Positions 15,313 through 41,067 of a stretch of DNA of 64,000 bases are shown here, in pieces; positions within the stretch are counted from its first letter, which is position 1, and each line of letters opens with the position of its first letter. The translations under genes were made by a program, and so were the position numbers. The stretch covers positions 124,001-188,000 of the forward strand of contig NZ_JACXXN010000008.1 of the NCBI RefSeq assembly GCF_014904695.1. Reading direction: 5' to 3'. Source of the DNA: Nostoc sp. MG11. GTDB lineage: Bacteria; Cyanobacteriota; Cyanobacteriia; Cyanobacteriales; Nostocaceae. The notes beneath the pieces are model-generated. The model searched no databases. It was not told the DNA's origin and saw only the letters and a list, made by a program, of their open reading frames with translations.

Positions 15313-15408
15313 TAGTCTCTAGCAAAAGCCAACGTTTTAGAGATTAACCTGTTTTGCACTTTTATATCCTTATACCAATTTAAAAAAACAATGTAACAGA
15401 TAGACCAT

Positions 15409-15437
15409 GTAGAGACGTTGCAATGCAACGTCTCTAC
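15409..15437. repeat. Dispersed GTAGAGACG palindrome, copy 1
   Basis: Perfect 13-bp arms GTAGAGACGTTGC / GCAACGTCTCTAC around AAT. Related copies occur at 30684-30709 (inside an NRPS gene) and 59407-59449. Confidence 0.8.
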
Positions 15438-15492
15438 CAAAGGATTTGTTACAATCATTAATTGAATCGGTATTATTTAACAGTTTTAGCCC

Positions 15493-17517
15493 TTAAATTT
15501 TCACCCATTTCAAAACCTTTGGGTCTTTGTCGTATTGGTAGGTTCCGCCATCCTTAGTAGTGATGGATCTTCCTTGGCTTGCCCTACTTCTGATCGTAGT
15601 AAGAGAATAGTCTGTTAATGTTTTCATCTCTTGATGAGAAAGCCTGACAATTGTTGCTGTTGCTGCTGAGATTTCTGGTTCTATTTGAAGTTCATTGTTA
15701 GAGAAAATATCTATTGTTATTTGAGCTTTTTCAGGTGGATTAATGACAATTGCTTTTTGCAGTTGATAATCCTGTATAGAAATAAGTTGCCAATTAGAAT
15801 CTTCTGAAAGCTCTAAAACCCATTGATGGTAATTAAACAAACTTTCCCTATGTCCAACGCTAATAAAAGTTGTTTGCGTTTCTTGTAATTGTTTGTATAA
15901 ATTTCCTTCGTTATTCAAATCCAAAGCACTCGTTGCTTCATCTAATATGGTGAAGCTAGGACGTGTAATTAATAGTCGTGCGAAAGCGAGGCGTTGTTGT
16001 TCTCCTAACGATAATATATTTTCCCAAGGAACCTCTGTGTCAAAGCCATCCACGCGGGTAAGCAAGTTTTGCAGATTTACTTGTTGTAAAACTTCTTCGA
16101 GTTCGCGATCGCTTATTTTTCGGTCTGTATGCGAATAGAGTAACTGTTCGCGCAAAGTTCCCAAAATTATATAAGGACGTTGGGGTAAAAATAAGACTTC
16201 TTCTAGGGGAGGTCGCACCAGACGGCCAGTTCCCGCATTCCACAAACCAGCGATCGCTCGCAATAAAGAACTTTTACCTCGACCACTAGGCCCAACAATC
16301 AATAAACCTTTTCCTAGCTGAACAGACAATGATAAGTCTTCGACGATTACCTGTTCATAGTTGGGCGTTTGTAAAGTGACATCCTCAAAAGCCAGACGTT
16401 TTTCTTCTATTGTTTTAATAGTACTTACATTCTCTGGTTCTTTGGTAACAGCTTCTAACGCATCTGAAAACTCAGTTAAACGCTCAACGTAACTCGAAAA
16501 TCGTCCTGAAGTTCCAAATTCATTGATTAATGTTGCCAGCGCACTAGCAAATAGATTGGCAGCCATATTAGCTTGGCTAACTTGGCCAAAATCAATTTCA
16601 TCCTTCATATATAAAGGTGCAAGTACTAAAAAAGGAAATATTTGGATAAGGGCCTGATACCCTCGGTTAAAAATTTCCTCATTTCTTTCCCAATTAATCT
16701 TGCGTTGAACATTTTTAATAACCTGATCAAATCTCCGCCCAATTATATTTGATTCTTGATTTTCTCCTCGAAAAAAAGCTATTGATTCAGCATGATTACG
16801 AACATGAGTTAGAGAATAATTATAATCGGCTTCAACTTCAAGTTTTTCTTGATTAATCTTATTTAATTCTTGAGTTAAGTAAAGAGCAATTAAATTTCCT
16901 ATGATTGTATAAACAAGTAAAACAGATGCAACGAATTGAGAAATTGACCAAAGAATTGTTAAAAAAATCATCATTTCCAACACTTTTTCTAAAAAAGTAG
17001 TTGAAAAACTAAAAAAAGTTCTGGTAACAGGTTCGATTTCTTGAGCTAGACGTTGGTCTGGGTTATCGATATCAGATTTAAAATTGATTTTATAATAGGC
17101 GCGATTACGCAAATATTTTTCTAAAATGTGATTATTTAACCATTGATACCAATCAAGAGCAATTTTCTTTCTAACAAATTTAGAAAATCCTACCAAGAGT
17201 GTTACGCAGAAAAGACCAACGGCGTAAAGTGATATCGTTTGAAGAAAGCTAGAATAATCTTTCTCTTCAATAATATCGATTAGATCGCGAGTAATGAAGG
17301 TATTAAAGGCGGTTACGCCCACAAGCGCCATTACTAATAATATCAGGAGAGCTAGCATCCCCCAAGCACGAATCACGTCTGAAAATGCTCTGCTCCCTGC
17401 CTTTGTTGGATACCAGTAAGGCCCTGCGATCGCTTTTACGTTTTCCCAAAATTGAGTAAAAGCCGAAATAAAAGAAGGATTTTTTGAAGGTTGATTAGGA
17501 AAAACTTGAATTTGCAT
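15493..17517 (-). CDS. ABC transporter ATP-binding/permease protein, SbmA/BacA-like
   Basis: A 674-residue half-transporter. The N-terminal 330 residues form a membrane domain of the ABC_membrane_2 type (RAWGMLALLILLVMALVGVTAFN, then FRGENQESNIIGRRF after VRNHAESIAF). The nucleotide-binding domain has Walker A GPSGRGKSS (about 409), signature LSLGEQQRLAFAR and Walker B FTILDEATSALD (about 524). A roughly 90-residue C-terminal extension (TIDIFSNNELQIEPE...DPKVLKWVKI) is unusual for the family. It lies 5 bp after the racemase and is the last gene of the NRPS/PKS operon, so product export is the likely job, although SbmA/BacA themselves import peptides. Confidence 0.88.
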   Translation of the reverse strand: MQIQVFPNQPSKNPSFISAFTQFWENVKAIAGPYWYPTKAGSRAFSDVIRAWGMLALLILLVMALVGVTAFNTFITRDLIDIIEEKDYSSFLQTISLYAVGLFCVTLLVGFSKFVRKKIALDWYQWLNNHILEKYLRNRAYYKINFKSDIDNPDQRLAQEIEPVTRTFFSFSTTFLEKVLEMMIFLTILWSISQFVASVLLVYTIIGNLIALYLTQELNKINQEKLEVEADYNYSLTHVRNHAESIAFFRGENQESNIIGRRFDQVIKNVQRKINWERNEEIFNRGYQALIQIFPFLVLAPLYMKDEIDFGQVSQANMAANLFASALATLINEFGTSGRFSSYVERLTEFSDALEAVTKEPENVSTIKTIEEKRLAFEDVTLQTPNYEQVIVEDLSLSVQLGKGLLIVGPSGRGKSSLLRAIAGLWNAGTGRLVRPPLEEVLFLPQRPYIILGTLREQLLYSHTDRKISDRELEEVLQQVNLQNLLTRVDGFDTEVPWENILSLGEQQRLAFARLLITRPSFTILDEATSALDLNNEGNLYKQLQETQTTFISVGHRESLFNYHQWVLELSEDSNWQLISIQDYQLQKAIVINPPEKAQITIDIFSNNELQIEPEISAATATIVRLSHQEMKTLTDYSLTTIRSRASQGRSITTKDGGTYQYDKDPKVLKWVKI

Positions 17518-17522
17518 ATAGA

Positions 17523-18320
17523 TTAAATTGTTTCACACAAAGCCGTTTTAGAGTTAATAGTCGATGAATTAAATTGCTGAGGTAATTTTATTTTTTCTGT
17601 GAGTAAAATAGAACTAGATGTAGCTGTTTCTAATAGCTGAGAAAAGTTTTGAGCAATAGTAGTTAAAGGATCAATCGCTTTTATAGAATCAATTTTATTG
17701 AGTTTGAGAGATTTTGTGAATAAATGAAATTCTGTACAACCAGAAATATAGGAACGAGTATTATATTTATGTAATAATGCTTGGATATCTACAAGAATTG
17801 TGAGTGGGTCTTGTCCGCGTTTAAGAACTCGATAAATCAGCTCATGAATTGAGTATTGGTCTTTTTCAGATAGAGAAATAATCCGATTTGTAGCAGCACA
17901 GCCTTCGTGAAACAATTTTTTATGGTAAGTGCCTGTGCTTGCCAGCAAAAGGGCAGGTTCATCATGTTCTTGAAGTTGTTGATCTGCGATTTTAATTAAG
18001 GAAATTACTTTATTAGTAAGATGTTCTGGGATATGAGGCAGAGCATAATGAGATGTACAACAGCCAATCACTATGCGGTCAACCAATTTATTGAGATTTT
18101 CTAGATGCAGTTGAATAAAATCAATAAATTCTCTTTCATTTCCATTATTAATTGAACTTGTGCGATCGGGTGCAGAAGGAAGTGAGAACACAATGACGTT
18201 GGGTGCTTCTTGTTCCTTGTCAATAAACTGGTTATATTCATAAATAGATTTGAGAAATTCGGCAGTAACTACAGGCCCCATACCACCTAAAACTCCAAGC
18301 ATTGGTAGTTTTTTATTCAT
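17523..18320 (-). CDS. Aspartate/glutamate racemase family protein
   Basis: A cofactor-independent racemase of 265 residues with a two-cysteine active site. MLGVLGGMGPVVTAEFL starts the fold; the first catalytic Cys lies in VIGCCTSHYALP (the family usually has C-N-T, here C-C-T) and the second in ISGCTEFHL. It lies 62 bp after the thioesterase module and 5 bp before the transporter, within the biosynthetic operon. McyF in microcystin clusters is the known precedent for a dedicated Asp/Glu racemase. Because no epimerisation domain exists in any module, this enzyme is the natural source of a D-residue, most likely D-Asp for the final module. Confidence 0.85.
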   Translation of the reverse strand: MNKKLPMLGVLGGMGPVVTAEFLKSIYEYNQFIDKEQEAPNVIVFSLPSAPDRTSSINNGNEREFIDFIQLHLENLNKLVDRIVIGCCTSHYALPHIPEHLTNKVISLIKIADQQLQEHDEPALLLASTGTYHKKLFHEGCAATNRIISLSEKDQYSIHELIYRVLKRGQDPLTILVDIQALLHKYNTRSYISGCTEFHLFTKSLKLNKIDSIKAIDPLTTIAQNFSQLLETATSSSILLTEKIKLPQQFNSSTINSKTALCETI

Positions 18321-18382
18321 AAATATTCTTTAAATCAGTGATTGCAACGATTTAGCGGCGAATGGCTTATACCAATTCGTAA

Positions 18383-21300
18383 TTACAAAACTTGGACAGA
18401 ATCAGGCTTTATGGGTTTGAATTTATTGCCGAATTTTGGAGAAGCTTGTGCTTGCTGGATGAAGACTTTCAACCGTTCGGCTAACACCTGGACGTGGGGT
18501 TCAGCCATCATTGTCACATGATTGCCTGGCAGAAAATCGACATTCACTGGTTCGCCAGAAAATTCATTCCAGCCCAAGGTTGAATCTTGTAACATCTCAT
18601 CAGGTAATTTTCTAACGTAATTTTCTCCAAGAGGTTCGCTGGCACGTAAAAGCGTAATTTGGTCAGGATAAATATGTTGTGGTACGTAATCAATGAGAGA
18701 AAGAGAGTTAGCTTTATAGGCTTGCATCATATTTTTTAGCTGCGTAGTTTCAGCGTTAGGAGGTAGCATATTAACCATTTTCAAAAGCTGTAAAACATAT
18801 TTTAGTTGCTCGTCCACGGGCAGCGATCGCAGAGTATTGTAAGAAATGTCCATCTTCGTTGCCAGCGTCACTTCTACTATTTTGATCAAGTCAATCAGCC
18901 ACCTAGCATGATCCCAATCAAGACAATCAAGACGTGTTTGCCTTTCATTAGAGGTTGGTGCGGTAGTATCAATAATCACAAGCAGTTCTACCTGATGTCC
19001 CTGAACCTGCAACTGTTGCGCCATTTCAAAAGCTACTTTGCCTCCAAAAGAATGCCCTCCCAAAAAGTATGGCCCTTGCGGCTGAACAGCTTGGATTGCT
19101 TGAATATAATTACAAGCCATATCCCGAATTTGGGTGGCTGGCGCTAATTCTCCATCTCGATTGTTTAGTTGAAAACTATACAACGGTTGATCTGCTCCTA
19201 AATAACGCCCTAAGTGATACAAGTAGAAAGGCTCGCCACCAGCGCCGGGCACGCAGAAGAAAGGTAAATTTGCACCGTTTGGCTGAATTGGTACTAAGCA
19301 AGACGAATTTGAGCAATCTGAGTCTATTTGCACAATTGTCGCCAACTGTTCAATAGTGGGATTTTGGAATAGGCTTGCCAAGGGTAACTCTTTGCCAAAC
19401 TGTTGCTTAATTTGAGCCATTAAGAAGGGAACTAAAAGAGAATGACCGCCAAAGTCAAAAAAGTTATCTTGTACTCCCACTTTGTCAATTTTGAGAATCT
19501 TTGACCAAATTTGCACCAATTGCAGTTCTAATTGGTTACGGGGTTCGACAAATGTGCCTGAGTTATTAATGTGAGAAGGTGCGGGCAAAGCGCGGCGGTC
19601 TACCTTGCCGTTGGGTGTGAGTGGCAAGCTATCTAGGAAGACAAAACTAGAAGGAACCATATACTGTGGCAACTTCGTGGAGAGGAAGTTGCGGATTTCA
19701 TTAATAGTGGGTGCTGAATGCTGATTTGGGATGATGTAAGCCACTAAGCTTTGCTCACCAAAAGCATCTTCACGGGCAGTCACTACAGTCTGATGTACAG
19801 ATGGGTGTTGTGCTAATGCTGTCTCAATTTCCCCAAGCTCAATACGTATGCCGCGAATCTTGACTTGATGGTCTTGGCGACCAATAATTTCTAGGGAACC
19901 ATCTGGAAGATAGCGTCCGCGATCGCCTGTATAGTACAGTAAATCCTGGTCGTCATTGCGAAAATGGTTTTTGACGAATCGAGAGCGCATTTCTGCTGGG
20001 GCATTAATGTAGCCCAAGCTGCGGAATGGTGTTCGCAAAATAATCTCTCCCAGTTCTCCAATGCCACACAATTGCTGATTTACACCCAAAACTAGTGCTT
20101 GAGTTTCAGGTATTGCCCATCCTGCTGGCTGTATTCCTGGTGTCGGTTCGCTAGGTACTTGGTAGTAACACTTAACTAAAGTTGTCTCTGTCGCCCCATA
20201 AAGATTGATGATTTCTCCTGCTTGGGGAAAAGCATCTCGCCACCGCCTTATCAGTGTTTCCTTAAGCGGTTCTCCAGAAAAGAATAACCAGCGTAAGTGA
20301 CGCAGAGAAACTTCTTTTGGTACATTAGCTAACCATGATTGCGCTAAGCAAGGAACTGTATGTACAACAGAAATCTGCTCGCGTTCCAAGTAACGCAGGA
20401 TTTTCGTCGGTTCTAAGTTATCTCCTTGGGCTGGCAGACATAAGGTTGCACCACTAGTTAAAGGTAAGAAGATATCTCTAAGGATGGCATCAAAGGAAAG
20501 TTTTGTTAATTGGGCAATGCGGTCTTGCTGACCAATTCCGAAGATCTGACGCTGCCAGCTGATAAAATGCGCTATCCCTTTGTGACACCCTAACACTCCT
20601 TTCGGAACGCCAGTACTACCAGAAGTAAAGAAAATATAGGCTGCATCATCACTAGATATTTCCGGCAGGGGTATTGTCTGACTGCTTTCCTGGCGATAAT
20701 TTATCGGTTCTGCCGTGTCTTTATTTATACGTATGACAGTTAGAGACTGCCATATCTCCTCGCCTTGTGGGTACTGACCATCAATATCCAATATGTATTT
20801 AGCTTTAGCTTCTTTGAGTATCAGCTGTTGGCGAACGCTTGGAAGTTGGGGGTCGAGAATCAGTAGTACTCCTCCACTTAAAAGAACGGCAAGTATACTG
20901 GTAATCAATCCAAAACTAGATGTCCCATACAAGGCGACGACATCTCCCCGTTGGATTCCGTGACTCAGCATCACCCTGGCTAAGGTTTGGGAGCTTTTGC
21001 CTAATTCCCCATAGTTCCAAGTGCGAGAGCCTTGACGCACTGCTGAGAGTTCTGGGGTGCTATTTACCCAAGAGGTAAACGTGGTTGTGACTAATTCGTA
21101 TTCTGGTTCTGGTATGGCTTTTGTGGGATCTGGCAGCAAAAATCGGGCTTGTGGTGTGACAAGAGAATAAGAGGCGATACCTTCTCTACGAGAGGCTCCG
21201 CCAACGGTAAGCTGCGCTAACGCACTATCAGGCTCGACAACAATTTGATTCAGCAAATGATGGAACTGTTGCAACATTTCCACCATTCGTTGTGAAGTAA

Positions 21301-24300
21301 ATAGGTCAGAATTGTAGACTACTTGCAGAGTTATTCCTTGTTCGTGTTCTGCAACATACAAGCTTAAGTCAAACTTGGAAGCTGCTTCTGGTATCGATAT
21401 CGGTTCTAAAGACAACCCAAAAAGTTCCGGTTGAGTGTCTGCCAAGTTCATTAAATTAAACCATACTTGAAACATTGGGTTATGGCTGAGATTTCGTTCT
21501 GGCTGCAATGCTTCCACCAACATTTCAAAAGGCAAATCTTGATGAGAGTATGCTCCCAAAGCCACTTCTCGCACCCGTGATAATAGCTGCCTAAAACTAG
21601 GATTACCATCCAAGCGGGTACGCAACACAAGGGTATTGACAAAAAAGCCAATTAATGGTTCTACTTCTGCACGATTACGGTTAGCGATCGGTGTTCCTAT
21701 GCAGATATCATCCTGCCCACTATAGCGCCATAGCAATATTTGGAATGCTGCTAACAACGTCATAAATAAAGTCACACTTTCTGTTTGGCTCAACTGTTTG
21801 AGTGCAACAGTCAGTTCTTTTGAGAGTGCAAACTTTTGATATGCCCCGTGGTAAGTTTGCATAGCTCCTCTAGGTCGGTCTGTCGGTAGAGAAGATAAAG
21901 CTGGTGCGTTGGCTAATTGTTGTTGCCAGTAACTCAGTTGCCTTTGCAGTACATCCCCTTGCAACCAGTTTCGCTGCCAAATTGCAAAATCTGCGTACTG
22001 AATCGGCAATGGCGCTAAGGGTGACAGCTCACCTTGAGAATAAGCATTGTACAGCGATGCTAACTCTTGGATAAACACACCCATTGACCAGCCATCCGAG
22101 ACAATGTGATGTATGTACACTAACAAAGCGTGTTCTGTTTGAGACAGCACGACTAAAGTTGCCTTGATTAACGGTTCATCTGCCAGGCTAAAAGGTTGAA
22201 TGGCTTGTTTCTGCACTAATTGCTGTATGGCAATTTCTTTTTCACTTGTTGGTAGATCTTCGCAGTTAATAATTGATAGTGTCCAATTCGTTTTTGTTTG
22301 GATAACTTGAGTTGGTTGTCCATCAACTGTAAGGAAATTGGTGCGTAAAGCTTCATGGCGACCAATGATTGCTTGTAAACTTTGTTCTAAGGCAGGTTGA
22401 TTGAGATTTCCTACTAGACGCACAGTTAAGGGCATATTGTAGGAACCACTGCCCGGTTGCAGTTGGTCTAAAAACCACAAACGCTGCTGAGCAAATGACA
22501 ATGGTAATTGAGCATCCCTTGCCCGCCTTAAGATTGGTTGAGAAGTTAGTTCTAATTTCTGTTGCTGCAACTGCCCAATCAGATACCCTAATTCGGCAAC
22601 TGTGGCTGCGGCAAACAGGCTACGCAAAGGTAATTCTACTTGGAAAATGTTGCCAATACGTGATAGCAATTGTGTTGCTAGTAACGAATGTCCCCCCAGT
22701 TCAAAGAAGTTATCATAAATACCCACTTGCTCCACTTTCAGCACTTGCGCCCAAATTTGTGCCAGCATTTCTTCAATCGGTGTGCTTGGGGCAATATATT
22801 TGTTTTTGGGTTCGCTGTGTAAATCTGGTGCAGGTAAAGCGCGGCGGTCTACTTTGCCGTTGGGAGTGAGTGGCAGATACTCCAGAATAACTATTGCATT
22901 TGGCACCATGTACTCTGGGAGTTTTGCCTTTAGGAAGTGCCGTAGTTGATTGATTGTGGGTGTACAGTGCTGATGCAACACCACGTAGGCGACTAAGCGT
23001 TTATCACCTGGGATATCTTCACGGGCAATGACACAAGATGCCTGTACATCTCCATGTTGACTCAGTGCTGTTTCGATTTCGCCCAACTCAATGCGGAAGC
23101 CGCGAATCTTAACTTGATTATCTATACGTCCTATATATTCAATGTTGCCATCGGGTAAATAGCGTGCTAAATCCCCGGTTTTATATAATTTTGAATTTTG
23201 AATTTTGAATTTTGAATTGTCAAAGGGGTTGGAAATGAACTTCTCTTGTTTTAATTTCGGGCGGTTGAGATAGCCTCGTGCTAATCCTGCGCCACCAATG
23301 TGCAGTTCTCCTGGTACACCTACGGGAACTGGTTGTAAGTTCGAGTCGAGAATGTAGATTTGTGTGTTGGGAAGGGGGCGACCAATGGGAACCGAGGACA
23401 AGGCATCACACATCTGGGCAGATAAGGGACAGCCACTAGCTTGAATTGTTGTTTCTGTAGGTCCGTAACCGTTAATTAGCTGGGGGGAAGTTGCAAACTT
23501 ATATAAATCTGCATTTTGTTGTATGTATTCGTACCACAGTTTGATTTTTTCTGGTAATAATCTTTCTCCACCAATAGTTATTAGTCGTATCGGTGACAAA
23601 CTCTTGTTTGTTCGAGCCAGTTCTGTAACTAACTCATGCCAGTAAGCTGCTGGTAGATTGAGTACGGTTATTTGCCAACGCTCAATTCCTTCCATCAAAG
23701 CGAGCCAGGAATTCAACATTTGTTCTGTCCGCAACACCAGTGTGCCGCCAACACTTAAGCAGGGATAAACATCTTTAGCGAAGACATCAAAACTAAAAGA
23801 ACTAAACTGGAGGATGCAATCTTTTTGGTTAATCCCCCATTGTGTTACCTCAGCTTTTGTAAAGTTGACCAAAGACTGATGCTCAATCATCACTCCTTTT
23901 GGTGTTCCTGTAGAACCAGAGGTATAAATCACATAAGCCAGATTAGTTGCTTGTAAATTACTAATGAGATTATCTTGACTTGACTGAGTTATGCTCTCCC
24001 ACTGTGTATCTAAACAGATGAGTTTCGCTTGATGCTCAGGTAGTCTGTCAACTAGATGCTGTTGAGTAAGCAACACTGAAACTTGAGCATCTTTAAGCAT
24101 AAAGTGCAAACGTTCAGTTGGATACTCTGGGTCAAGTGGCACATAAGCACCACCCGCCTTGAGAACCCCCAACAGCCCCACGACCATTTCTATAGAACGC
24201 TCTATACAAATGCCCACTAACACATCAGCTTTTACACCCAAAGTTCTTAGATAGTGCGCCAACTGGTTAGCGCGGCAGTTCAATTCATGGTAGGTTAGTT

Positions 24301-25966: not shown

Positions 25967-26079
25967 AGAAATTACCTCCATACCTGGTTAGTAGATGGGA
26001 GCATCCCAAATGTTTTGTTTTTAAACGCAGAGGAGCGCAGAGTTTTACGCAGAGGGGCGCGGAGGGTTTTTGAACTTAT

Positions 26080-29151: not shown

Positions 29152-29153
29152 TT

Positions 29154-32100: not shown

Positions 32101-32639
32101 TGAATTTCTTTAGTAACTAGTTGTTGGATTTCACCTTTTTCTAATCCTTCTACATCTACTACGGATATATTGATAGTCAAAGTAGGGATAATCTTCTGTA
32201 CCGCTAATCCATCTACTGTTAGGAAAATAGTCCGTAAAGCTTCGTGGCGACGGATAATTTCGTTGAGGCTATGCTCTAATGCTGCTATGTTTAGCGCCTC
32301 AGTAATCCGAAGTTGTACACTGCCATTATAAAAGGAGTTTTGTTTATCTAACTGATTGAGAAACCACAACCTTTGTTGACTAAAAGATAAAGGTAAATCG
32401 CTATCTCGGTCAACAGATAAAATAGGTTCAAAAGCTAATTTATTATCTGTTTTTGCTTCTTTAAGACAGTTAAATATTTCTTCTTTTCGCTTTATCAACT
32501 CCTGCTTGAAGGCTGATGTCATTACTCCCTTGGGAGCGCGATAGCGAAGTTGGTCGTTTTCAACCCAAACTTTTATATCTAAACTGTTCAGTAAAGATAA
32601 AAATTCAAATACGGTTGTTTTATTAATATCATTATTCAT
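29154..32639 (-). CDS. NRPS module TubC-C-A-PCP, predicted Ile/Val-like specificity
   Basis: 1,161 residues: a TubC docking domain (about 8-65, KVWVENDQLRYRAPKGVMT), C (HHIITDG about 211), A (TSGSTGTPKG about 691) and PCP (GGHSLLLV about 1077), with a basic tail (QSRQQYRSQRKR). The pocket residues read DAFFLGVTF, a code of the Ile/Val class with the Lys of NGKV present; the usual D of NGKVDRRAL is N here. A palindromic repeat interrupts the A domain near residue 647. The PKS starts 2 nt after the stop, so this residue should be the one extended by malonate. The docking domain is strikingly similar to that of the neighbouring methyltransferase gene. Confidence 0.94.
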   Translation of the reverse strand: MNNDINKTTVFEFLSLLNSLDIKVWVENDQLRYRAPKGVMTSAFKQELIKRKEEIFNCLKEAKTDNKLAFEPILSVDRDSDLPLSFSQQRLWFLNQLDKQNSFYNGSVQLRITEALNIAALEHSLNEIIRRHEALRTIFLTVDGLAVQKIIPTLTINISVVDVEGLEKGEIQQLVTKEIQQPFDLSIAPLLRVTLLRQEVESYLLVLTMHHIITDGWSMEIFFKELEVFYDAFTKGQLSSLPELTIQYADFALWQRQCLTKEVQQKQLEYWKQQLADAPPLLELPTDYPRPPVQTFSGATQRFQLEKDLTSQLVTLSQKSGVTLFMTLLTAYVVLLHRYSGQDDICIGSPFANRDRQELESLIGFFANTLVLRTNLTGNPSFNELLSRVREIAMDAYTHQDFPFEMLVEALQPQRDLSHTPLFQVTFALQNASTSPVNLTGLTVTSLPTETTTTKFDLTLLIENTSTGLVSVWEYNTDLFNASTIERMAGHFQTLLESIVANPEGKISHLPMLTQVEQHQLLVEWNNTQTDYPEDKCIHQLFEEQVERTPDAVAVVYGDQQLTYHELNCQANQLAHYLKSLGVGADMLIGICVERSLEMVVGLLGILKAGGAYLPLDPEYPQERLQFMLADTRLKVLLTQEKFVETLHTTSLDQTRVVCLDIDWQSIKEVNHDNLNSTVSSQNLAYVIYTSGSTGTPKGVIVTHQAVNRLVFNTNYIQLTPDDRVAQAANIAFDAATFEIWGALLHGAKLVIFHQSVLLIPKEFAVNMCSYEISILFLTTALFNQLASFVPQAFSSLRYLLFGGEAVDPRWVEEALDKGAPQQLLHVYGPTENTTFSTWYLVEKLPTKAVTIPIGRAISNTQIYLLDQNLQPVAIGIPGELYLGGVGLARGYLNRPELTQENFIPNPFCTDPHSRLYKTGDLVRYLSDGNIEYIRRIDNQVKIRGFRIELGEIEAVLSQHGDVQISCVIAKEDSSGSKCLVAYVVPHQQQTLTTSELRQFLVDKLPGYMVPSAFVILESLPLTPNGKVNRRALPDPDLHQELSDYVMPNTQAEKIIADIWQKALKVEKVGIYNNFFELGGHSLLLVIINQQLQEQFALEISIVDMFNYPTIHTLSQYLSTSIQKEDPNKHNNYRTQSHSEIKSLRTQQLQSRQQYRSQRKR
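30684..30709. repeat. GTAGAGACG palindrome copy 2, inside NRPS A domain
   Basis: Arms TAGAGACGTTG / CAACGTCTCTA around TATG. In frame it encodes VETLHTTSLDQ between core motifs A2 and A3, where the sister A domains have LPEHQAK or LPEHAAR. Confidence 0.75.
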
Positions 32640-32798
32640 ATTTATTTTGCTTTATTACTAGTCAAACCAATCATTGGCAAAGTTGTATTTAAGTAGGTAA
32701 TTGCAATTATTTAGAACTCAGTAGCCTGACTAGAAGAGGGTTGAGCGCAGTCGAAACCCGGCAATTCCAAGTTAGGTTTAATTTGGCTTTTCTACTTA

Positions 32799-34118
32799 CT
32801 ACCTTTTTGATGTTGTAACAGAACTATTTATATTAGAATTCAACACATAGTTAGAAAAAAGATTCTTATAAAATAATGTTTGTTTAAATGCCATTTTGTA
32901 ATGATACGAATAGTATTTAAATTCAATTTTTTGTCCTGTTTTTTTAATCACATAACCTTCTATCTTATAGTCTGGGTTCAGATTGTTCTCACAAAGCGAG
33001 CCACTACAAATGGCTTCTATCTTGTCTCCTTGAGAAACTTGAATTCCTGGCGAGAAGACTGGGAAATATACAGGTAGCCAGCAATATTCATGCTCTAGTA
33101 CATCGATAACTTCTCCCTCTATTGTGTGTAGGTTGAGCCAAACGATAAAGCCATCCAATCTCGAATCTTTTAGAATGCTGAGATTGACTTTGTGACTATA
33201 TTCTGGCTCGATAGTAGCTGCGAAATTCAGGTCTTCAAAAATCGAGCTAGTGGAGATAATACTAGACTTGGAAAAATGTCTCAGACATAACCTTAAATCA
33301 AAGGGGTATCCAACTTGTTCAAATATTTTACGGGTATAATAAGCTGGGATTTCTGTAAACTCTGGATTTTGCAAAAACTCATCAAGTAGGCAAACACCAG
33401 CAATTTTAGTAACGCTTCTTGCCGGAATCATCACTCCATCTTCTTTCAAAAATCTGCGGGCGTTATTCAAAATTAATGCCGCGCCTTCAACTCCTCCAAT
33501 GGAGCCAACTATTTCTGACACACAAACGTCAGCCAATTCAGGTAAACTAACTTTGGTTGCATCCCCTAAAATTAAGGTTATCTTGTCCGATAAACCAAGT
33601 TTGTTAATGCAAGCTTTGGCTGAGTTGTAATATTTTTCGCTCATTTCAATTGCATAGACTTTCCGCGCATTGGCTTCTACACAAAATCTAGCTAAAATTG
33701 CATCTTTGCCTGTTCCTATATCGACAACTACTTTATCTTTGACTAACTGATTAATAGCCACTTTATAGCTGTGATTTCTGCGGCGATCATTAGTTAAAAG
33801 GTAGTACAAAAAATCATCATACACGAAGAATTCTGCTAATGATGGCCATAGTTCAATTTGACTAGGCTTTTCATACTCTTCCTGAGATATTGACTTGACA
33901 TTTTTTTGAGAAACTACATCAGTTACTAAGCGTTTGTCGCCCATCACATCTTTTGCTTGTTTGAGAGACGTAAGTATTTCTGTTTTTCGTTCCACCAATT
34001 CCTGTTTGATATCTAATGTCATTACTCCTTTGGGAGCGCGATAGCGTAGCTGATTATCTTCAATCCAGATTGTGATGCCTAAATCTTTGAGTGAAGCAAA
34101 AAATTCAACTGTTGTCAT
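32799..34118 (-). CDS. Stand-alone SAM methyltransferase (PRMT-like) with an N-terminal TubC docking domain
   Basis: 439 residues. Residues 1-55 are a TubC-type docking domain (ITIWIEDNQLRYRAPKGVMT) nearly matching that of the next NRPS. Then comes a linker (MGDKRLVTDVV) that resembles the A-domain segment DKRLVAYVV of neighbouring genes. The catalytic part has motif I VVDIGTGKDAILARF (about 132), post-I VYAIEMSE, LILGDATKVSLPE, and SEIVGSIGGVEGAALIL with two Glu spaced nine residues apart, as in the double-E loop of protein arginine methyltransferases. The C-terminal half is a beta-rich barrel-like domain. It lies between two NRPS genes and 1 nt after the first, so it likely acts in trans on a carrier-bound intermediate. 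The methyl acceptor is unknown. Confidence 0.82.
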   Translation of the reverse strand: MTTVEFFASLKDLGITIWIEDNQLRYRAPKGVMTLDIKQELVERKTEILTSLKQAKDVMGDKRLVTDVVSQKNVKSISQEEYEKPSQIELWPSLAEFFVYDDFLYYLLTNDRRRNHSYKVAINQLVKDKVVVDIGTGKDAILARFCVEANARKVYAIEMSEKYYNSAKACINKLGLSDKITLILGDATKVSLPELADVCVSEIVGSIGGVEGAALILNNARRFLKEDGVMIPARSVTKIAGVCLLDEFLQNPEFTEIPAYYTRKIFEQVGYPFDLRLCLRHFSKSSIISTSSIFEDLNFAATIEPEYSHKVNLSILKDSRLDGFIVWLNLHTIEGEVIDVLEHEYCWLPVYFPVFSPGIQVSQGDKIEAICSGSLCENNLNPDYKIEGYVIKKTGQKIEFKYYSYHYKMAFKQTLFYKNLFSNYVLNSNINSSVTTSKR

Positions 34119-34119
34119 T

Positions 34120-37100
34120 TTATAAACACCCTTCTTCGTATTCTTCTTCTGTATTAGTCATCCAAGTATCTTCGTCTTTTGTTGCAATTCGTAGTATCTC
34201 AATGTTATTAGCTAACTCAGCTACAGTAGGAGATATAAATAAACGGTGTAAAGACAAATCAATAGAGAAAGCAACGCGCAATCGAGAAATTACTTGCGCC
34301 CCCAAGAGGGAATTTCCTCCCAGTTCAAAGAAGTTATCGTGAATACCTACTGGCTCTACTTTGAGGATGTCAGCCCAAATTTTTACCAATATTTCTTCTT
34401 GTGGGGTGCGCGGGGCTACAAAATTTACCTCTAGTCCCTCACGCGACTCTGGGGCAGGTAAGGCGCGGCGGTCTATTTTACCGTTAGATGTTAAGGGTAA
34501 AGATTCTAGCATGACAAAAGCACTGGGAACCATGTAGCTTGGCAGTTGGTCGTTGAGGAAGCGACGTAGTTCTGCGACGGTGAGAGATTGCTCTGTCTTC
34601 GGCACTACGTAAGCAACTAAACGCTTGTCGTTGAGTTCATCCTCTCGTACCACCACCACGTTTTCCCAAACGGCTAAGTGTTGCGCTAGTAATCCCTCAA
34701 TTTCTCCCAACTCTATGCGGAAGCCGCGAATTTTGACTTGATTGTCAATTCGTCCTAAATACTCCAACTCGCCATTGGGCAAATACCGTGCTAAGTCCCC
34801 TGTTTTATATAGTCGCGCTTGAGGGTTGTTGCTAAAAGGATGACAAATAAAACGTTCTGCTGTCAGTTCGGGACGATTCAGATAACCATGCGTTACCCCT
34901 GCACCACCGACATACATTTCACCTGGAACACCGATTGGTACTGGTTGTTTATATTCATCCAGCACATACACTTGTAAGTCAGGTATCGGAAGACCAATGA
35001 CACTGGCGCTATGATTTAAATCGGCTTTGCTCAAGGGACGATAGGTGACGTGTACAGTGGTTTCGGTAATCCCGTACATATTCACTAATTGGGGCATCTG
35101 ATCGCCATGTCGCTTAAACCAAGGCTGTAAACTCTTGATTTCTAAGGCTTCTCCACCGAAAATTACTAGGCGTAAGTTCAACTCATCAGCAGTTGTCATT
35201 GACTGTTCGGCTTGAATTAATTGGCGAAAGGCGGAGGGTGTTTGATTGAGAACTGTGACTTGTTCTTGAGCTAATAACTGGTAGAATGATTCGGGCGATC
35301 GCGTCACTAAGTAAGGAACTATTACCAGTCGTCCACCATACAGCAAAGCTCCCCAAATTTCCCACACGGAAAAGTCAAAGGCGTAGGAGTGGAACATTGT
35401 CCACACATCTTGGGCATTGAAGCGATACCATGCTGCTGTAGCTGCAAACAGACGCACTATATGAGCGTGGTTGACTAAAACGCCTTTAGGTTTACCTGTG
35501 GAACCTGAAGTATAGATGACATAAGCTAGGTTATTGGGTGTTGCGGTGTTTTCCGGGTTTGACTCACTATTTTGAGCTATTTTTTCCCAATTGGTATCTA
35601 AGCAGAAAACTCTGGCAGCATGCTCAGGTAGCTGGTTGACTAATTGCTGTTGGGTGAGCAGTACTTGAACTTGAGCATCTTCCAGCATAAAGCTCAGACG
35701 CTCAATCGGATACTCAGGGTCAAGGGGTAAATAAGCACCACCCGCTTTGAGAATGCCTAGTATACCGACAATCATTTCTAGCGATCGTTCTACACACAAC
35801 CCAACCAATGTATCTGGTTTGACACCCAAGGACTGCAAGTAACGAGCTAACTGATTAGCACGACAATTTAACTGCTCATAGGTTAATTGTTGATTGTCAT
35901 ACACCACCGCTACAGCATCAGGAGTATGCTCAACCTGCGACTCAAACAACTGATGGATGCACTGATCGGCAGGATATTTCGCCTGAGTATCGTTCCATTC
36001 AACTAATAACTGTTGTTGCTCAGGTTGTGTCAGCAGTGGTAATTGCGAAATTCTTTCCTCTGGGTTAGCAACAATACCTTCTAGCAAGGTGACAAAATGC
36101 CCTGCCATTTGGGTAATTGTAGATCGATCAAATAGGTCAGAGTTGTACTCTAAACTTCCACTCAGTCCTTGTTCAGTTTCCGTCATCAACAAGGTTAAAT
36201 CAAACTTAGCTGTCGGGTTTTCTATTTCTAAGGCAGTTACAGATAAACCAGGCAATTCCAATTTTCCCGGTGGCGTATTCAACAAAACGAACATTACCTG
36301 GAACAATGGAGAGTAGTTGAGATTTCTTTGTGGCTGTAAGGCTTCTACTACTTGCTCAAACGGCACATCTTGATGAGCGTAAGCATCGAGCGCGACTTGG
36401 CGTACTCTTTGCAATAACTCCCAAAAACTGGGATTCCTGGAAACGTCAGTACGCAACACCAAAATGTTGACAAAAAAGCCGATAAGTGAATCTATTTCAC
36501 TACGGTTACGGTTGGCTATTGGAGAACCGACGAGAATGTCTTGTTGATTGCTGTAGCGCGATAGTAGGATGACGAAGCCACTCAGCAAAGTCATAAATAA
36601 GGTTGCGCCTGAATGTTCGTTAAGGCTTTTGAGTTTTTGCGTCAGACGCTTGTCTAAGCTAAAGCGCTCGATACCGCCACGGTTTGTCTGGATTGGTGGG
36701 CGCACTCTATCGGTGGGAAGTTCTAGCAGGGGAGGCGAATTTGCTAGCTGTTGCTTCCAGTAGTTCAGTTGAATTTCGATGACTTGAGCTTCTTGCAACC
36801 ATTGTTTTTGCCAAATTGCAAAGTCTGCGTACTGAATGGACAATTCAGGCAATGGAGAAGGCTTACCAACAGAAAAAGCCGTGTACAAGGCTGTCAGTTC
36901 TTGCCAAAAAATACCTTCCGACCAACTATCAAAAACAATGTGGTGGACACTTAAGAGTAGTACATATTCATTTTCATCTAGTTGCACTAGGGAAGACCGC
37001 AACAGCGAGTCTTGCTCTAAATTAAAGGGTTGTTGAGCTTCGTTTTTGACTATTTGTAAAAGTTGAGTTTCTCTTTCGCTTTGAGGAAGTTCTTGAAGAT

Positions 37101-37482
37101 AGACTACAGGTAAAGTTAATTTTAGGCTCGGAGTAATTACTTGAACTGGCTTATTTTCTGAAGCGAAAAATGTAGTTCGTAATGCTTCGTGGCGTTGGAT
37201 TATCTCATTGAGACTATACTCTAATGCACAAATGTTGAGTAAACCCTGGAGGCGAAAAGCAAAGGAGACGTTGTAGGTGGAGCTATTTTGCTGCAATTGG
37301 TAGAGGAACCATAACCTTTCTTGGGAGAAGGACAAAGGTAGGTGTTGATGGCGAGATACAGGTATCAAGGCTGGAGCTTGATTCTGTAAATCGAGAATAC
37401 TTGCGATCGCCTGCCAGATATTCTCTCCTGTTTTTACTGTCTTGTTTGGTTCTAATGGATTTATTTCAGCAGAATAGCTCAT
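34120..37482 (-). CDS. NRPS module C-A-PCP, predicted threonine
   Basis: 1,120 residues, the first elongation module. After a roughly 45-residue lead come C (HHIVFDSWS about 181, with Ser in place of the usual Gly of HHxxxDG), A (TSGSTGKPKG about 659) and PCP (GGNSLLGAQ about 1059). The pocket residues read DFWNIGMVH, the classical threonine code, with Lys in NGKIDRRALP. There is no TubC domain; the C-terminus is acidic (DEDTWMTNTEEEYEEG), suitable as a docking tail for the TubC domains of the methyltransferase and the next NRPS. The C domain should couple the 4-hydroxybenzoyl starter from the free carrier protein to Thr. Confidence 0.94.
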   Translation of the reverse strand: MSYSAEINPLEPNKTVKTGENIWQAIASILDLQNQAPALIPVSRHQHLPLSFSQERLWFLYQLQQNSSTYNVSFAFRLQGLLNICALEYSLNEIIQRHEALRTTFFASENKPVQVITPSLKLTLPVVYLQELPQSERETQLLQIVKNEAQQPFNLEQDSLLRSSLVQLDENEYVLLLSVHHIVFDSWSEGIFWQELTALYTAFSVGKPSPLPELSIQYADFAIWQKQWLQEAQVIEIQLNYWKQQLANSPPLLELPTDRVRPPIQTNRGGIERFSLDKRLTQKLKSLNEHSGATLFMTLLSGFVILLSRYSNQQDILVGSPIANRNRSEIDSLIGFFVNILVLRTDVSRNPSFWELLQRVRQVALDAYAHQDVPFEQVVEALQPQRNLNYSPLFQVMFVLLNTPPGKLELPGLSVTALEIENPTAKFDLTLLMTETEQGLSGSLEYNSDLFDRSTITQMAGHFVTLLEGIVANPEERISQLPLLTQPEQQQLLVEWNDTQAKYPADQCIHQLFESQVEHTPDAVAVVYDNQQLTYEQLNCRANQLARYLQSLGVKPDTLVGLCVERSLEMIVGILGILKAGGAYLPLDPEYPIERLSFMLEDAQVQVLLTQQQLVNQLPEHAARVFCLDTNWEKIAQNSESNPENTATPNNLAYVIYTSGSTGKPKGVLVNHAHIVRLFAATAAWYRFNAQDVWTMFHSYAFDFSVWEIWGALLYGGRLVIVPYLVTRSPESFYQLLAQEQVTVLNQTPSAFRQLIQAEQSMTTADELNLRLVIFGGEALEIKSLQPWFKRHGDQMPQLVNMYGITETTVHVTYRPLSKADLNHSASVIGLPIPDLQVYVLDEYKQPVPIGVPGEMYVGGAGVTHGYLNRPELTAERFICHPFSNNPQARLYKTGDLARYLPNGELEYLGRIDNQVKIRGFRIELGEIEGLLAQHLAVWENVVVVREDELNDKRLVAYVVPKTEQSLTVAELRRFLNDQLPSYMVPSAFVMLESLPLTSNGKIDRRALPAPESREGLEVNFVAPRTPQEEILVKIWADILKVEPVGIHDNFFELGGNSLLGAQVISRLRVAFSIDLSLHRLFISPTVAELANNIEILRIATKDEDTWMTNTEEEYEEGCL

Positions 37483-37560
37483 TTTAGTCTTTTTGCTTCA
37501 GGTTTTTCAGGATTTACTGGAGTCTTTTGTTTTGCTGAAAAAGCTTGGTTATAAAAATTA

Positions 37561-37812
37561 TCAGCCTTGCTTTTCATTAATTAGTTTCACAATAGTTTCT
37601 ACGCTTTGAAAATTTCCTGCATTAATATCACTAACTGTAAACTTAATCCCAAAATTATTCTGTAGTTTCAAGACAAGGGTCATGGCATTAACAGAATCTA
37701 AACCCATACTAAAAAGATTGCTAGATTCTGAGAAATCTTCGATATTAATATTTGGTAAAACGTTTAAGACAATATTTTTAGTTTCTTGCTTAATTAAATC
37801 AAGACTTTTCAT
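37561..37812 (-). CDS. Free-standing acyl/aryl carrier protein
   Basis: 83 residues forming a four-helix carrier fold. The phosphopantetheine Ser lies in FSMGLDSVNAMTL (about residue 40). Its start overlaps the stop of the upstream AMP-ligase gene by 4 nt (ATGA), which indicates translational coupling and partnership: the ligase should load this carrier. It sits 78 bp before the first NRPS module. This ligase plus carrier arrangement parallels FadD22 of mycobacteria, where both are fused. Confidence 0.9.
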   Translation of the reverse strand: MKSLDLIKQETKNIVLNVLPNINIEDFSESSNLFSMGLDSVNAMTLVLKLQNNFGIKFTVSDINAGNFQSVETIVKLINEKQG

Positions 37813-39350
37813 GAATTTACTGGTTTTGATAAATTATCAATTAAAATTTTTCTTAATACTTTGCCTAATGGACTTTTGGGTATCTCGCTACGAAATTCGA
37901 TAATTTTTGGTATTTTAAAATCAGCTAACCTGTCTTTACAGTAAGATAAAATATCTTTTTCATCACAAATATCTCGGTTTTGAGGTACAATAACCGCTTT
38001 AATGATTTCTCCTGCATACAAGCCTTTGATACCAACAACAACTGCTTCTTTAACTTGATGGTGAGTTATCAGGATATTTTCTATTTCTAGTGGATCAACT
38101 TTGTGACCTCCTGTATCAATAAAAATTTGCTTTCTACCAGTAATATAAATACGCCCGGCTTCATCTTTCTTACCTAAATCACCAGTGAAAAACGACCCAT
38201 CTTTAAATACTTGTTGATTTAGTTGTGGCTGATTACAATATCCTTTAGTCAATGCTTGACTTTTGATGACTAACTCTCCAATGCTTCCAGTTGGGAGTTC
38301 CTTTCCTGCATCATCAATAATTTTAATCTCAATATTTTTTAAAGGAAGACCTACAGAATCGAAGGTATTTTTTATGTCTTCGTCTAGATTAATTGCAATA
38401 GAACCTGCTTCTGTAGAACCATAAAGTTGTCTCACTGTAATGCCAAATCTCTGAAGAAATTTATCAAAAATCTCTTTTGATAAAAAGTTACCGGCGGAAA
38501 AGCATAATTTCAGTGTAGAAATATCAGATTCAGTTTCATCTGATGCTTCTGCTAGAGTATTAAATATATAAGGAACACCAGGTAAAATAGTAATTTTCTC
38601 TTTTTCTATAAGTTCTAACACTCTCGAACGTCTAAAAACAAATGGCACTTCAATAGCTTTTCCTTGATGTAAAACTGGTTCTAAAATCACCAGAGTCGCA
38701 CCGTTGTGTATGGCAGCTAATAGGCAATTTCCTAATCCATGTGCGTGATACAGTGGCACTACACATAAAATATGATCTACTGAAGATATATGAGTGGTTT
38801 CAGAAAAGTTTGTAACTTCGTGATATAGATTATTTTGAGTTCTACATACTCTTTTAGGTCTACCTGTAGAACCAGAGGAATATTGATAAAGCACATCCCC
38901 TATAAAGGTAGAGGAGCTTTCTGTAATTATTGAGTTATTTAATTCTTTAGTAGGTGAATAAATATCATCAAGGATAATTAATTCTATTTTATTGTTTATT
39001 TTTGAGATAATTTTACGACTGATATCCGCGCCAGCACTACTGGTAATAATTGCCCTAGCATTGCTATCGATAATGTAGTAGTTGATTTCTTCTTCTTTAA
39101 GAAGGGGATTTATTGGCAAAGCTATAGCGTTCAGTTTGGCAGTAGCGTAAAAGGCGATCGCAAATTCTGGACTATTAGGTAAAATCAAAGCTATGCAGTC
39201 ACCTTGGACTATACCAATTTTGCTTAAATTGTTACTTAATTCTTTGATATTAGTGTATAGTTGCTGATAGCTAATTCTTGAATTATTATAGGCGATCACA
39301 GTTTTTTTAGGATATTTTCTTACGATTTCAACAAGTCTTTTTTTTAACAT
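37809..39350 (-). CDS. AMP-dependent acyl/aryl-acid ligase (starter loading)
   Basis: 513 residues of the ANL superfamily. The P-loop is YQYSSGSTGRPKR (about 173), followed by VVPLYHAHGLGNCLLAA, LYGSTEAG, FFTGDLGKKDEAGRIYITGRKQIF and the late Lys in PLGKVLRK. The PLYHAHGLG segment and the overall length resemble benzoate/coumarate ligases. With a chorismate lyase upstream and a carrier protein overlapping downstream, the expected reaction is ATP-dependent activation of 4-hydroxybenzoate and transfer to the carrier. A fatty-acid substrate remains possible. Confidence 0.88.
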   Translation of the reverse strand: MLKKRLVEIVRKYPKKTVIAYNNSRISYQQLYTNIKELSNNLSKIGIVQGDCIALILPNSPEFAIAFYATAKLNAIALPINPLLKEEEINYYIIDSNARAIITSSAGADISRKIISKINNKIELIILDDIYSPTKELNNSIITESSSTFIGDVLYQYSSGSTGRPKRVCRTQNNLYHEVTNFSETTHISSVDHILCVVPLYHAHGLGNCLLAAIHNGATLVILEPVLHQGKAIEVPFVFRRSRVLELIEKEKITILPGVPYIFNTLAEASDETESDISTLKLCFSAGNFLSKEIFDKFLQRFGITVRQLYGSTEAGSIAINLDEDIKNTFDSVGLPLKNIEIKIIDDAGKELPTGSIGELVIKSQALTKGYCNQPQLNQQVFKDGSFFTGDLGKKDEAGRIYITGRKQIFIDTGGHKVDPLEIENILITHHQVKEAVVVGIKGLYAGEIIKAVIVPQNRDICDEKDILSYCKDRLADFKIPKIIEFRSEIPKSPLGKVLRKILIDNLSKPVNS

Positions 39351-39424
39351 TTTTCCTCAACGATTAAAAATATACAGGCTTAAGCAAATCTGTTCTTATT
39401 TAGATATTTAACTATTCAATTTCT

Positions 39425-39964
39425 TTAATGTTCTTTAATGAAGTAGCTTTTCGGGAATTTTTCAGTAATCATTATTATCGGCTTTCTGTTAGAAAAAACT
39501 CGATAAGTCCGAGAAAGCATTTTGTCTTCTCTTGCTATATTAAAATAATCAGATAAGTCTTCAGCTGTTTCTATAGCTGAATCAATTATTTCTTTAAATA
39601 TCTCAAGTTTATGCTCTAACCAGAGCCTACCCATTGGTTCCTGGGATTCGATTAGTCTGGACTTCAATCTGTTATCTAGTCTTTCAGGTACAATTATAGA
39701 TTCAGCGTAAATAAAGTTTTTTAGACTAATCTGGCCTTGTAACAATATTTTTCTCTTAATTACTTGAGTGCCAATATCTAAATCTAAAGCTGAAATAGAT
39801 TTTGTAATTATGACTAATTCTTCTGATAACTTGACTAACTGAACTTTTTCCAATAAATAAGCTTCTAATATTTCCGTCAACGTGCCATCAGTTGTTAGTA
39901 AAATTCTTTGGAAAAGACTTAATTTAAACAAATCAATATGCTTAGTTGTCAATGATATTTGCAT
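39425..39964 (-). CDS. Chorismate lyase-like protein (DUF98/Rv2949c type)
   Basis: 179 residues. The pattern QRILLTTDGTLTEILEAY near the start, QVIKRKILLQG and NFIYAESIIVPERL in the middle, PMGRLWLEHKLE, and MLSRTYRVF...PIIMITEKFP at the end fits the DUF98 branch of chorismate pyruvate-lyases. Mycobacterial Rv2949c of this branch makes 4-hydroxybenzoate for FadD22/Pks15-1. It is the first gene of the operon and lies 74 bp before the ligase. The expected reaction is chorismate to 4-hydroxybenzoate plus pyruvate in the cytoplasm. Compared with plastoquinone-pathway lyases it is cluster-bound and probably dedicated. Confidence 0.78.
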   Translation of the reverse strand: MQISLTTKHIDLFKLSLFQRILLTTDGTLTEILEAYLLEKVQLVKLSEELVIITKSISALDLDIGTQVIKRKILLQGQISLKNFIYAESIIVPERLDNRLKSRLIESQEPMGRLWLEHKLEIFKEIIDSAIETAEDLSDYFNIAREDKMLSRTYRVFSNRKPIIMITEKFPKSYFIKEH

Positions 39965-40811: not shown

Positions 40812-41067
40812 TCAAGCAGAATTGCCAACTGTAACTTATTTGCAGCTAGAGAAACATGTACAATTAGGATAACGATTTTTTCGGAGGAGATGGATGACGA
40901 TTAAGCAAGGGTTTTAAACATTAATTATCCCAAAAATCATCCCAAAGCCTCTGAAAGTTGGTAGATACAAGTTTGGCTCTGACTTCTGACTTCGTTAAAA
41001 AACAACTTCACGCACTTTAACCAGACAATTCAAAGCATTGACTAAAGCAGGAGTGCTGTGACGAGTT

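What the first reader, a model, noticed from the sequence alone, without database searches (positions are those of the whole stretch)
15493..39964. Complete NRPS/PKS operon predicted to make a 4-hydroxybenzoyl-capped peptide-polyketide
Gene order matches an assembly line: chorismate lyase, ligase, carrier, C-A(Thr)-PCP, methyltransferase, C-A(Ile/Val-like)-PCP, KS-AT-ACP, C-A-PCP-C-A-PCP-TE, racemase, exporter. The Rv2949c/FadD22 pair is a precedent for the starter. I know of no described product with this exact order. The Thr hydroxyl could allow lactone closure by the TE (inference).
Basis: partly seen in the sequence, partly recalled or inferred. Interest (0 to 1): 0.75.

Follow-up and report, generated by a model that had tools for sequence, protein, structure and literature searches.

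The report
Aryl-capped cyanobacterial peptide–polyketide gene cluster
A cyanobacterium carries a complete-looking set of genes predicted to build a ring-shaped molecule by starting from a simple aromatic acid, and close relatives show the same starter genes attached to several different assembly lines.

Summary
The operon is real: ten uninterrupted genes on one strand, 15493-39964. It reads as a nostopeptolide/minutumamide-type NRPS-PKS line started by a 4-hydroxybenzoate cassette (chorismate lyase, ligase, carrier protein, first condensation domain). Nine of 216 other family genomes carry that cassette at 81-86% DNA identity, in front of differing assembly lines; one of them has all ten genes in order. 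The operon lies in a 25.8-kb island: three congeners show the flanks adjacent; a fourth keeps the exporter and scraps of the racemase and ligase genes. I found no described product with this order, but searched only an open-access library and opened few papers. One caution: the first C domain reads HHxxxDS where nine relatives have DG. All chemistry is inferred from sequence.

The parts
39425..39964 (-). CL: Rv2949c-like chorismate pyruvate-lyase paralog, proposed to make 4-hydroxybenzoate
   Evidence: PF01947 69.8 bits; PDB 2nwi E 3.4e-17; second, stronger PF01947 hit elsewhere in own genome, 212 bits; 43-85% identical lyases close to the ligase gene in 14 further loci
37809..39350 (-). LIG: acyl/aryl-AMP ligase, proposed 4-hydroxybenzoate activation
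   Evidence: PF00501/PF13193; nearest solved relatives oxalate-CoA and 4-coumarate-CoA ligases; YSSGSTG and the terminal LGK in 17 of 17 aligned ligases
37561..37812 (-). free aryl carrier protein, 83 aa, overlaps LIG by 4 bp
   Evidence: LDSV motif; 72-82% identical in the nine other cassettes
34120..37482 (-). N1: C-A(Thr)-PCP; first C proposed to accept the aryl starter (motif HHIVFDS); C-terminal tail ends EEEYEEGCL
   Evidence: code DFWNIGMVH; first C 79-87% identical in nine other clusters; tail shared only by the three of ten clusters with a free MT; motif
32799..34118 (-). MT: TubC_N docking domain + PRMT-like methyltransferase, free-standing
   Evidence: PF18563 and PF05185; residues 1-54 match the AerJ docking domain 8aqq, 108-262 match CARM1; 54-71% identical domains lie inside NRPS A-PCP stretches, shown as A-domain interruptions by Pfam in six of them and in G403
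29154..32639 (-). N2: TubC_N-C-A(Ile/Val)-PCP
   Evidence: code DAFFLGVTF
26080..29151 (-). PKS: KS-AT-ACP, AT motif HAFH (malonyl type, recalled), no KR, no C-MT; tail DREEIAI
   Evidence: seven related PKS genes have a C-MT between AT and ACP (Pfam for G528)
18383..25981 (-). N34: TubC_N-C-A-PCP-C-A-PCP-TE; codes DVKNTGGIQ and DARHFSLLV
   Evidence: terminal 3.8-5.5 kb 82-88% identical in DNA to six genomes, among them G403 and G445 with minutumamide-like lines
17523..18320 (-). RAC: McyF-like aspartate racemase, both cysteine motifs present
   Evidence: PDB 5wxx McyF E 1.8e-119, 401 bits; best non-McyF racemase 1jfl 67 bits
15493..17517 (-). ABC exporter (ABC_membrane_2 type)
   Evidence: the only whole cluster gene kept in congener G447, 95%
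15348..41140 (.). genomic island holding the operon, between an Orn/Lys/Arg-decarboxylase-like gene and phoD
   Evidence: three congeners have the two flanks adjacent; a fourth has a deletion scar

Best explanation
The operon is an orphan hybrid NRPS-PKS line of the minutumamide/nostopeptolide kind with a plug-in aryl starter. Shown by sequence: a conserved cassette CL-LIG-ACP-first C domain, module order Thr, Ile-type, KS-AT-ACP, X, acidic-type, TE, a McyF-like racemase and an exporter. Inferred: CL makes 4-hydroxybenzoate from chorismate; LIG adenylates it and loads the free ACP; the first C domain joins it to Thr on N1. MT, carrying a TubC-type docking domain, binds the acidic C-terminal tail of N1, which N2 also uses, and methylates the aroyl-Thr intermediate there, most likely on the phenol (4-methoxybenzoyl). 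N2 adds Ile or Val; the PKS adds one malonyl unit left as a beta-ketone; N34 adds an unassigned residue X and a D-Asp-like residue (RAC supplies the D-form), possibly activated through its side-chain carboxyl; the TE closes a lactone on the Thr hydroxyl. Predicted product: cyclo-[(4-methoxy- or 4-hydroxybenzoyl)-Thr-(4-amino-5-methyl-3-oxoheptanoyl)-X-D-isoAsp], exported by the ABC protein.
For: Cassette: 9 of 216 other family genomes carry it at 81-86% DNA identity over 3.2-3.9 kb (which scored at most two candidates per genome, so a floor). By protein, C1 is 79-87% identical while the first A domain is 53-82% to its best-matching window A domain; residue 1 is Thr in six and Pro-type in four of the ten clusters, so the starter end is conserved and the rest swapped. 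Core: G403 and G445 carry minutumamide-like lines (Thr, Pro/MePro-type, Phe, [KS-AT-CMT-ACP], Tyr-type, DVRHFALLA, TE, ABC), and minutumamides are acyl-Thr-Hmp-Amopa cyclic pentadepsipeptides (PMC12184294, section 6). My arithmetic on their formula leaves C13H14N2O5, i.e. Tyr + Asp, for the last two residues. MT: all 3 clusters with a free MT, and none of the other 7, have N1 ending EEEYEEGCL; MT and N2 docking domains are 50-60% identical to each other but 30-40% to that of N34. Embedded relatives follow Tyr-type A domains in 12 of 20 cases; the PRMT-like first methyltransferase of LynB3 is presumed a Tyr phenol O-methyltransferase (PMC10127204, passages); G403 with Tyr-type residue 1 has the PRMT-like domain plus a second one, G445 with Phe-type has only the second. 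In G528 the residue after MT is methylproline-type, with nosE/F-like genes near, which argues against N-methylation of the next residue. RAC: McyF match. The two clusters with RAC have DARHFSLLV; four related lines without it in the stretches read have DVRHFALLA.
Against: No substrate was tested. 4 of 20 embedded MT relatives follow Ile-type A domains, which offer no hydroxyl, and 4 more have unclear codes; one Ile-type and one unclear relative lost the first Glu of the double-E loop, but three Ile-type ones kept it. G098 has a 52% identical free-standing relative of 415 aa with no docking domain and no NRPS/PKS match in the 19.9 kb read, so free-standing forms are not tied to docking. The free MTs group with the Tyr-type L010 and with L011 at a weak support of 61. 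The window's first C domain has HHIVFDS in place of HHxxxDG. LIG's closest solved relatives are ligases for oxalate and coumarate, not 4-hydroxybenzoate. CL is absent beside LIG in 2 of the 10 cassettes. X cannot be assigned. GrsA positions and the meaning of all codes (Thr, Ile, Val, Pro, Phe, Tyr, MeAsp, D-Glu) are recalled.
Confidence: 0.6

Rival explanations
1. The free MT is a backbone N-methyltransferase: it methylates the amine of Thr on N1, or of Ile on N2, before condensation, giving an N-methyl residue and leaving a free 4-hydroxybenzoyl cap.
For: The MT family lives inside interrupted A domains, where N-methylation is common; four of 20 relatives follow Ile-type A domains without a side-chain hydroxyl; N2 carries the same kind of docking domain.
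Against: In G528 the next residue is methylproline-type and cannot be N-methylated; Thr on N1 stays possible. Where both kinds occur in one module (G403 by Pfam, G250/L022 by BLAST at 35%) the second, Methyltransf_12-like domain fits the N-methyl role. Ile-type modules of G428, G470, G502 and G522 use that other type.
Confidence: 0.27
2. LIG activates a fatty acid or another aryl acid, and CL only adds 4-hydroxybenzoate for other uses.
For: NCBIfam's best hit is a long-chain fatty acid-CoA ligase subfamily, far below its cut-off (362 against 476 bits); LIG occurs without CL beside it in G359 and G342.
Against: CL sits with LIG in 8 of 10 family cassettes, in L042 and L043, and in five more distant clusters with a different synthetase; a separate, higher-scoring lyase exists; the first C domain is kept with the cassette.
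Confidence: 0.12
3. The cluster makes a minutumamide or nostopeptolide already described, and the cassette is incidental.
For: Core genes are related to minutumamide-like lines.
Against: The window operon lacks methylproline genes, the C-MT and a Phe-type module, and has an Ile-type module, RAC and a different starter; the described minutumamides start with phenylbutyrate or phenylbutenoate, nostopeptolides with a fatty acid.
Confidence: 0.03
4. The cluster is decaying or blocked and makes nothing.
For: A congener has lost nearly all of it; the first C domain has Ser for the Gly of HHxxxDG, unlike nine relatives.
Against: No stop or frameshift in ten genes; the other motifs checked are present; the whole set is conserved in G443 at 63-94% per counterpart domain.
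Confidence: 0.07

Closest known systems
Minutumamide (min) cluster and compounds, Nostoc minutum NIES-26 (PMC12184294)
   Same: Thr first residue, one PKS module making a beta-keto unit, two further residues, TE, cyclic depsipeptide logic; the minutumamide-like lines of G403 and G445 share the terminal modules
   Different: Starter is PKS-derived phenylbutyrate; has Hmp and Amopa (Phe plus C-methyl); the words chorismate and hydroxybenz do not occur in that paper's text; the named min sequence itself was not compared here
Nostopeptolide A1/KVJ3 (nos) clusters
   Same: NRPS-PKS-NRPS order, TubB/TubC-type docking domains, ABC exporter
   Different: Fatty-acid start, larger rings, methylproline genes
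LynB3 (lyngbyapeptin B) and ColG (columbamide) double-methyltransferase modules
   Same: LynB3 has a PRMT-like first methyltransferase; ColG's two domains are as cited there
   Different: There it is embedded in an A domain; here it is a separate protein with a docking domain; sequences not compared
AerJ docking domain (PDB 8aqq, 8aqr)
   Same: Residues 1-54 of MT match it; AerJ as a docked tailoring halogenase is recalled
   Different: MT carries a methyltransferase
Rv2949c/FadD22 pair of mycobacteria (recalled)
   Same: Chorismate lyase plus ligase plus carrier giving a 4-hydroxybenzoyl starter
   Different: Carrier is a separate protein here and feeds an NRPS C domain; sequences not compared
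McyF aspartate racemase of microcystin clusters (PDB 5wxx)
   Same: RAC matches over 231 residues at 401 bits
   Different: The other nine genes do not form a microcystin line (mcy order recalled)

Membership tests
Minutumamide/nostopeptolide-type NRPS-PKS lines | Terminal NRPS with TubC_N-C-A-T-C-A-T-TE related to minutumamide-like lines | tested here: met
   82-88% DNA identity over 3.8-5.5 kb to G443, G403, G469, G475, G460, G445 (140 of 217 genomes scored, one candidate each); only G443, G469, G403 and G445 were annotated
Minutumamide/nostopeptolide-type NRPS-PKS lines | PKS module leaving a beta-ketone (no KR) | tested here: met
   KS-AT-ACP only in the window; KS-AT-CMT-ACP in G528 by Pfam and in G469, G470, G359, G342, G403, G445 by BLAST
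Minutumamide/nostopeptolide-type NRPS-PKS lines | Methylproline genes nosE/nosF | tested here: not met
   Not among the window operon's genes; Pfam-confirmed in G528, inferred from length and place in G469, G403, G445
Minutumamide (compound class) | PKS-derived phenylbutyrate starter | tested here: not met
   CL-LIG-ACP cassette instead
4-hydroxybenzoyl starter cassette | Rv2949c-like lyase next to ligase and carrier | tested here: met
4-hydroxybenzoyl starter cassette | Ligase activates 4-hydroxybenzoate | not testable with these tools
   needs an enzyme assay
Interrupted-A-domain methyltransferases, PRMT-like kind | Sequence kinship and intact SAM/double-E motifs | tested here: met
   54-71% to 20 embedded domains (19 of the 23 matches of 50% or more, plus G403); tree and motifs
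Interrupted-A-domain methyltransferases, PRMT-like kind | Located inside an A domain | tested here: not met
   Free-standing with TubC_N in the window, G443 and G528; free-standing without it in G098
TubC-type docking domain proteins | PF18563 at the N-terminus and an acidic C-terminal partner tail | tested here: inconclusive
   PF18563 63.6 bits; co-occurrence with tail EEEYEEGCL 3 of 3 against 0 of 7; binding not tested
McyF-type aspartate racemase | Close sequence match and two cysteine motifs | tested here: met
Microcystin cluster | Other mcy genes in the operon | tested here: not met
   Domain order of the ten genes does not fit; mcy order recalled

The most novel reading that the evidence does not exclude
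A phenol O-methyltransferase was lifted out of an interrupted A domain, given its own docking domain, and now works in trans on the aryl starter while it sits on the first module, sharing one docking tail with the next synthetase. The product would be the first described 4-methoxybenzoyl- or 4-hydroxybenzoyl-capped member of the minutumamide/nostopeptolide kind, as far as my searches reach, and the cassette a natural plug-in starter swapped between lines.
Probability: 0.45. Interest if true: 0.6.

Novelty: new variant of a known kind. Interest (0 to 1): 0.5.

Why it matters
Nature appears to have done what engineers try to do: the same four-part aryl starter unit is attached to lines with different first residues (Thr or Pro-type), with or without a PKS, while the C domain that accepts it is kept. 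It also offers a testable case of a tailoring enzyme that shares one docking tail with the next synthetase. The orphan product can be sought directly in strains that carry the cluster.

Tried and rejected
N-methylation of the following residue was my first reading of MT; put second after G528 (methylproline-type next residue), the G403/G445 pair and the lyngbyapeptin passage. A KR in the longer PKS of relatives was my first guess; Pfam shows a Methyltransf_12 domain in G528 instead. Ten paper searches were run; six concerned a product, the others docking or methyltransferases. Of the listings no title or abstract start named such a peptide; only PMC11877528 of them was opened, by passages. From I saw passages of PMC6835634 and PMC5088731: the terms benzoic and benzoyl do not occur in either text. 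So a description that I did not meet remains possible. The AerJ search found no paper. The plasmid collection held only ligases under 60% identity (with a cap reached in 11 records). Structure prediction was not run: no alignment seemed allowed beyond the window's own sequence and I expected a poor model. X was not assigned. Whether the N1 tail is unique in the genome was not tested.
Full report
Ten genes run on the minus strand from 39964 to 15493 with tight spacing. Domain searches give lyase, ligase, carrier, C-A-PCP, TubC_N-methyltransferase, TubC_N-C-A-PCP, KS-AT-ACP, TubC_N-C-A-PCP-C-A-PCP-TE, racemase, exporter (the carrier and motif). The motifs checked are present, except that the first C domain reads HHIVFDS; the nine related first C domains read HHxxFDG. 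The genome (8.41 Mb, 238 contigs) is rich in NRPS: 50 condensation-domain matches, 49 over the family cut-off.

Relatives. DNA of the lyase-ligase-carrier-first C stretch was searched in the family, 217 genomes with the own one: nine others hold it at 81-86% identity over 3.2-3.9 kb (at most two candidates per genome were scored); many lower matches are ordinary condensation-domain kinship. G502 is taken as Nostoc sp. TH1S01 because its contig has the same 65,879 bases as L041's. Two more loci are L042 (Phormidium sp. LEGE 05292) and L043 (Xenococcaceae MAG, cut off after the ligase). 39.8 kb from each of the nine was annotated. G443 has all ten genes in order (63-94% per counterpart domain), with a Val-type in place of the Ile-type code. 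G528 shares lyase, ligase, carrier, N1 and MT, then has methylproline-type and Phe-type modules and KS-AT-CMT-ACP. G469 is similar without MT. G359 and G342 lack the lyase beside the ligase. G428, G502 and G522 show no PKS in the stretch read. G470's PKS is split over three frames. So the starter end is conserved and the rest swapped: C1 79-87%, first A domain 53-82% to the best-matching window A domain.

Core. PMC12184294 (outline, passages, sections 6-11 read) describes minutumamides as cyclic pentadepsipeptides acyl-Thr-Hmp-Amopa plus two residues. Subtracting the named parts from C45H53N5O12 leaves C13H14N2O5, which is Tyr + Asp (my arithmetic; a passage search for Asp and Tyr in that text found none). 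G403 and G445 encode Thr, Pro/MePro-type, Phe, KS-AT-CMT-ACP, Tyr-type, DVRHFALLA, TE, which fits, although both have one more module in front. The window's last code DARHFSLLV keeps R239/H278, which I recall from microcystin MeAsp and D-Glu and from aminoadipate domains that activate a distal carboxyl. RAC matches McyF at 401 bits against 67 for the best non-McyF racemase. RAC is in the two clusters with DARHFSLLV and was not seen beside the four DVRHFALLA lines in the stretches read. D-Asp, side-chain linked, is the best guess. The DVKNTGGIQ residue stays open.

The methyltransferase. In 388 genomes of the order only the window's own match spans residues 1-439 (which scored at most four candidates per genome); G443 and G528, found later, have the same two-part protein. 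Most strong relatives lie in long NRPS frames; Pfam shows the A-domain interruption in six of them and in G403. One relative, in G098, is free-standing without a docking domain (52%, 415 aa). Of 20 embedded ones examined (19 of the 23 matches of 50% or more, plus G403; G098 and three others of the 23 were not in this set), 12 follow Tyr-type codes, 4 Ile-type, 4 others. Two are followed by a second methyltransferase: G403 by Pfam and G250/L022 by a 35% match. The free ones of the three clusters form one clade (bootstrap 100), nearest to L010 (Tyr-type) and L011 with weak support of 61; the Ile-type ones group with G403. PMC10127204 (passages) presumes the PRMT-like first domain of LynB3 to be the Tyr phenol O-methyltransferase and the second the N-methyltransferase. 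G403 (Tyr-type) has both, G445 (Phe-type) only the second. N1 ends EEEYEEGCL in the three clusters with a free MT and in none of the other seven; MT and N2 have related docking domains (50-60%), N34 another kind. Hence MT probably acts on what N1 carries, aroyl-Thr. The phenol is the Tyr-like site, and the Thr hydroxyl is wanted for the lactone. N-methylation remains possible (0.27).

History. Four congeners were checked. G445, G446 and G347 have the decarboxylase-like gene and phoD adjacent: window 15332-15347 jumps to 41139-41146. G447 keeps the exporter (95%), the sequence up to window 17661, which is 139 bp into the 3' end of the racemase gene, 148 bp of the ligase gene, and about 0.7 kb upstream of the operon, between the same flanks. 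The island was therefore once present in G447 and decayed; whether the empty sites are ancestral or later losses cannot be told from five genomes.

Limits. No named sequence of the min or nos clusters was compared; substrate codes rest on recalled register and meaning; the library holds open-access papers only and most hits were seen as listings; one search left 77 of 217 genomes unscored.

Noticed in passing
window 13708-13838: A stretch of about 130 bp between two genes matches many places in the five genomes of the genus (12-45 matches per genome to the whole query, mostly to this stretch), so it looks like a dispersed repeat.
   Followed up: no
L135, L136, L058, L059, L061: A second cluster kind: lyase, ligase (58-64%), carrier and a C-T-TE protein of 855-878 aa in which no A domain was recognised.
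   Followed up: partly
L126, L127, L129, L130: PRMT-like methyltransferases after Ile-type A domains, just before a Tyr-type module with the other kind of methyltransferase, in cyanopeptolin-like lines (that name is recalled); in L013, and in L021 of another line, the first Glu of the double-E loop is Ala.
   Followed up: partly
L156 9018-10262: Free-standing 415-aa relative of the methyltransferase (52%) without docking domain and without NRPS/PKS matches in the 19.9 kb read.
   Followed up: partly
L095:8361-9152: WelO5/2OG-oxygenase-like 264-aa gene where the window has its racemase; probably a proline hydroxylase.
   Followed up: partly
L044 9664-10284: 82% identical lyase with no ligase match in the 19.9 kb read, so the lyase may also serve other pathways.
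   Followed up: no
window 40676-40793: TTAAGACAG-type short repeats upstream of the operon.
   Followed up: no
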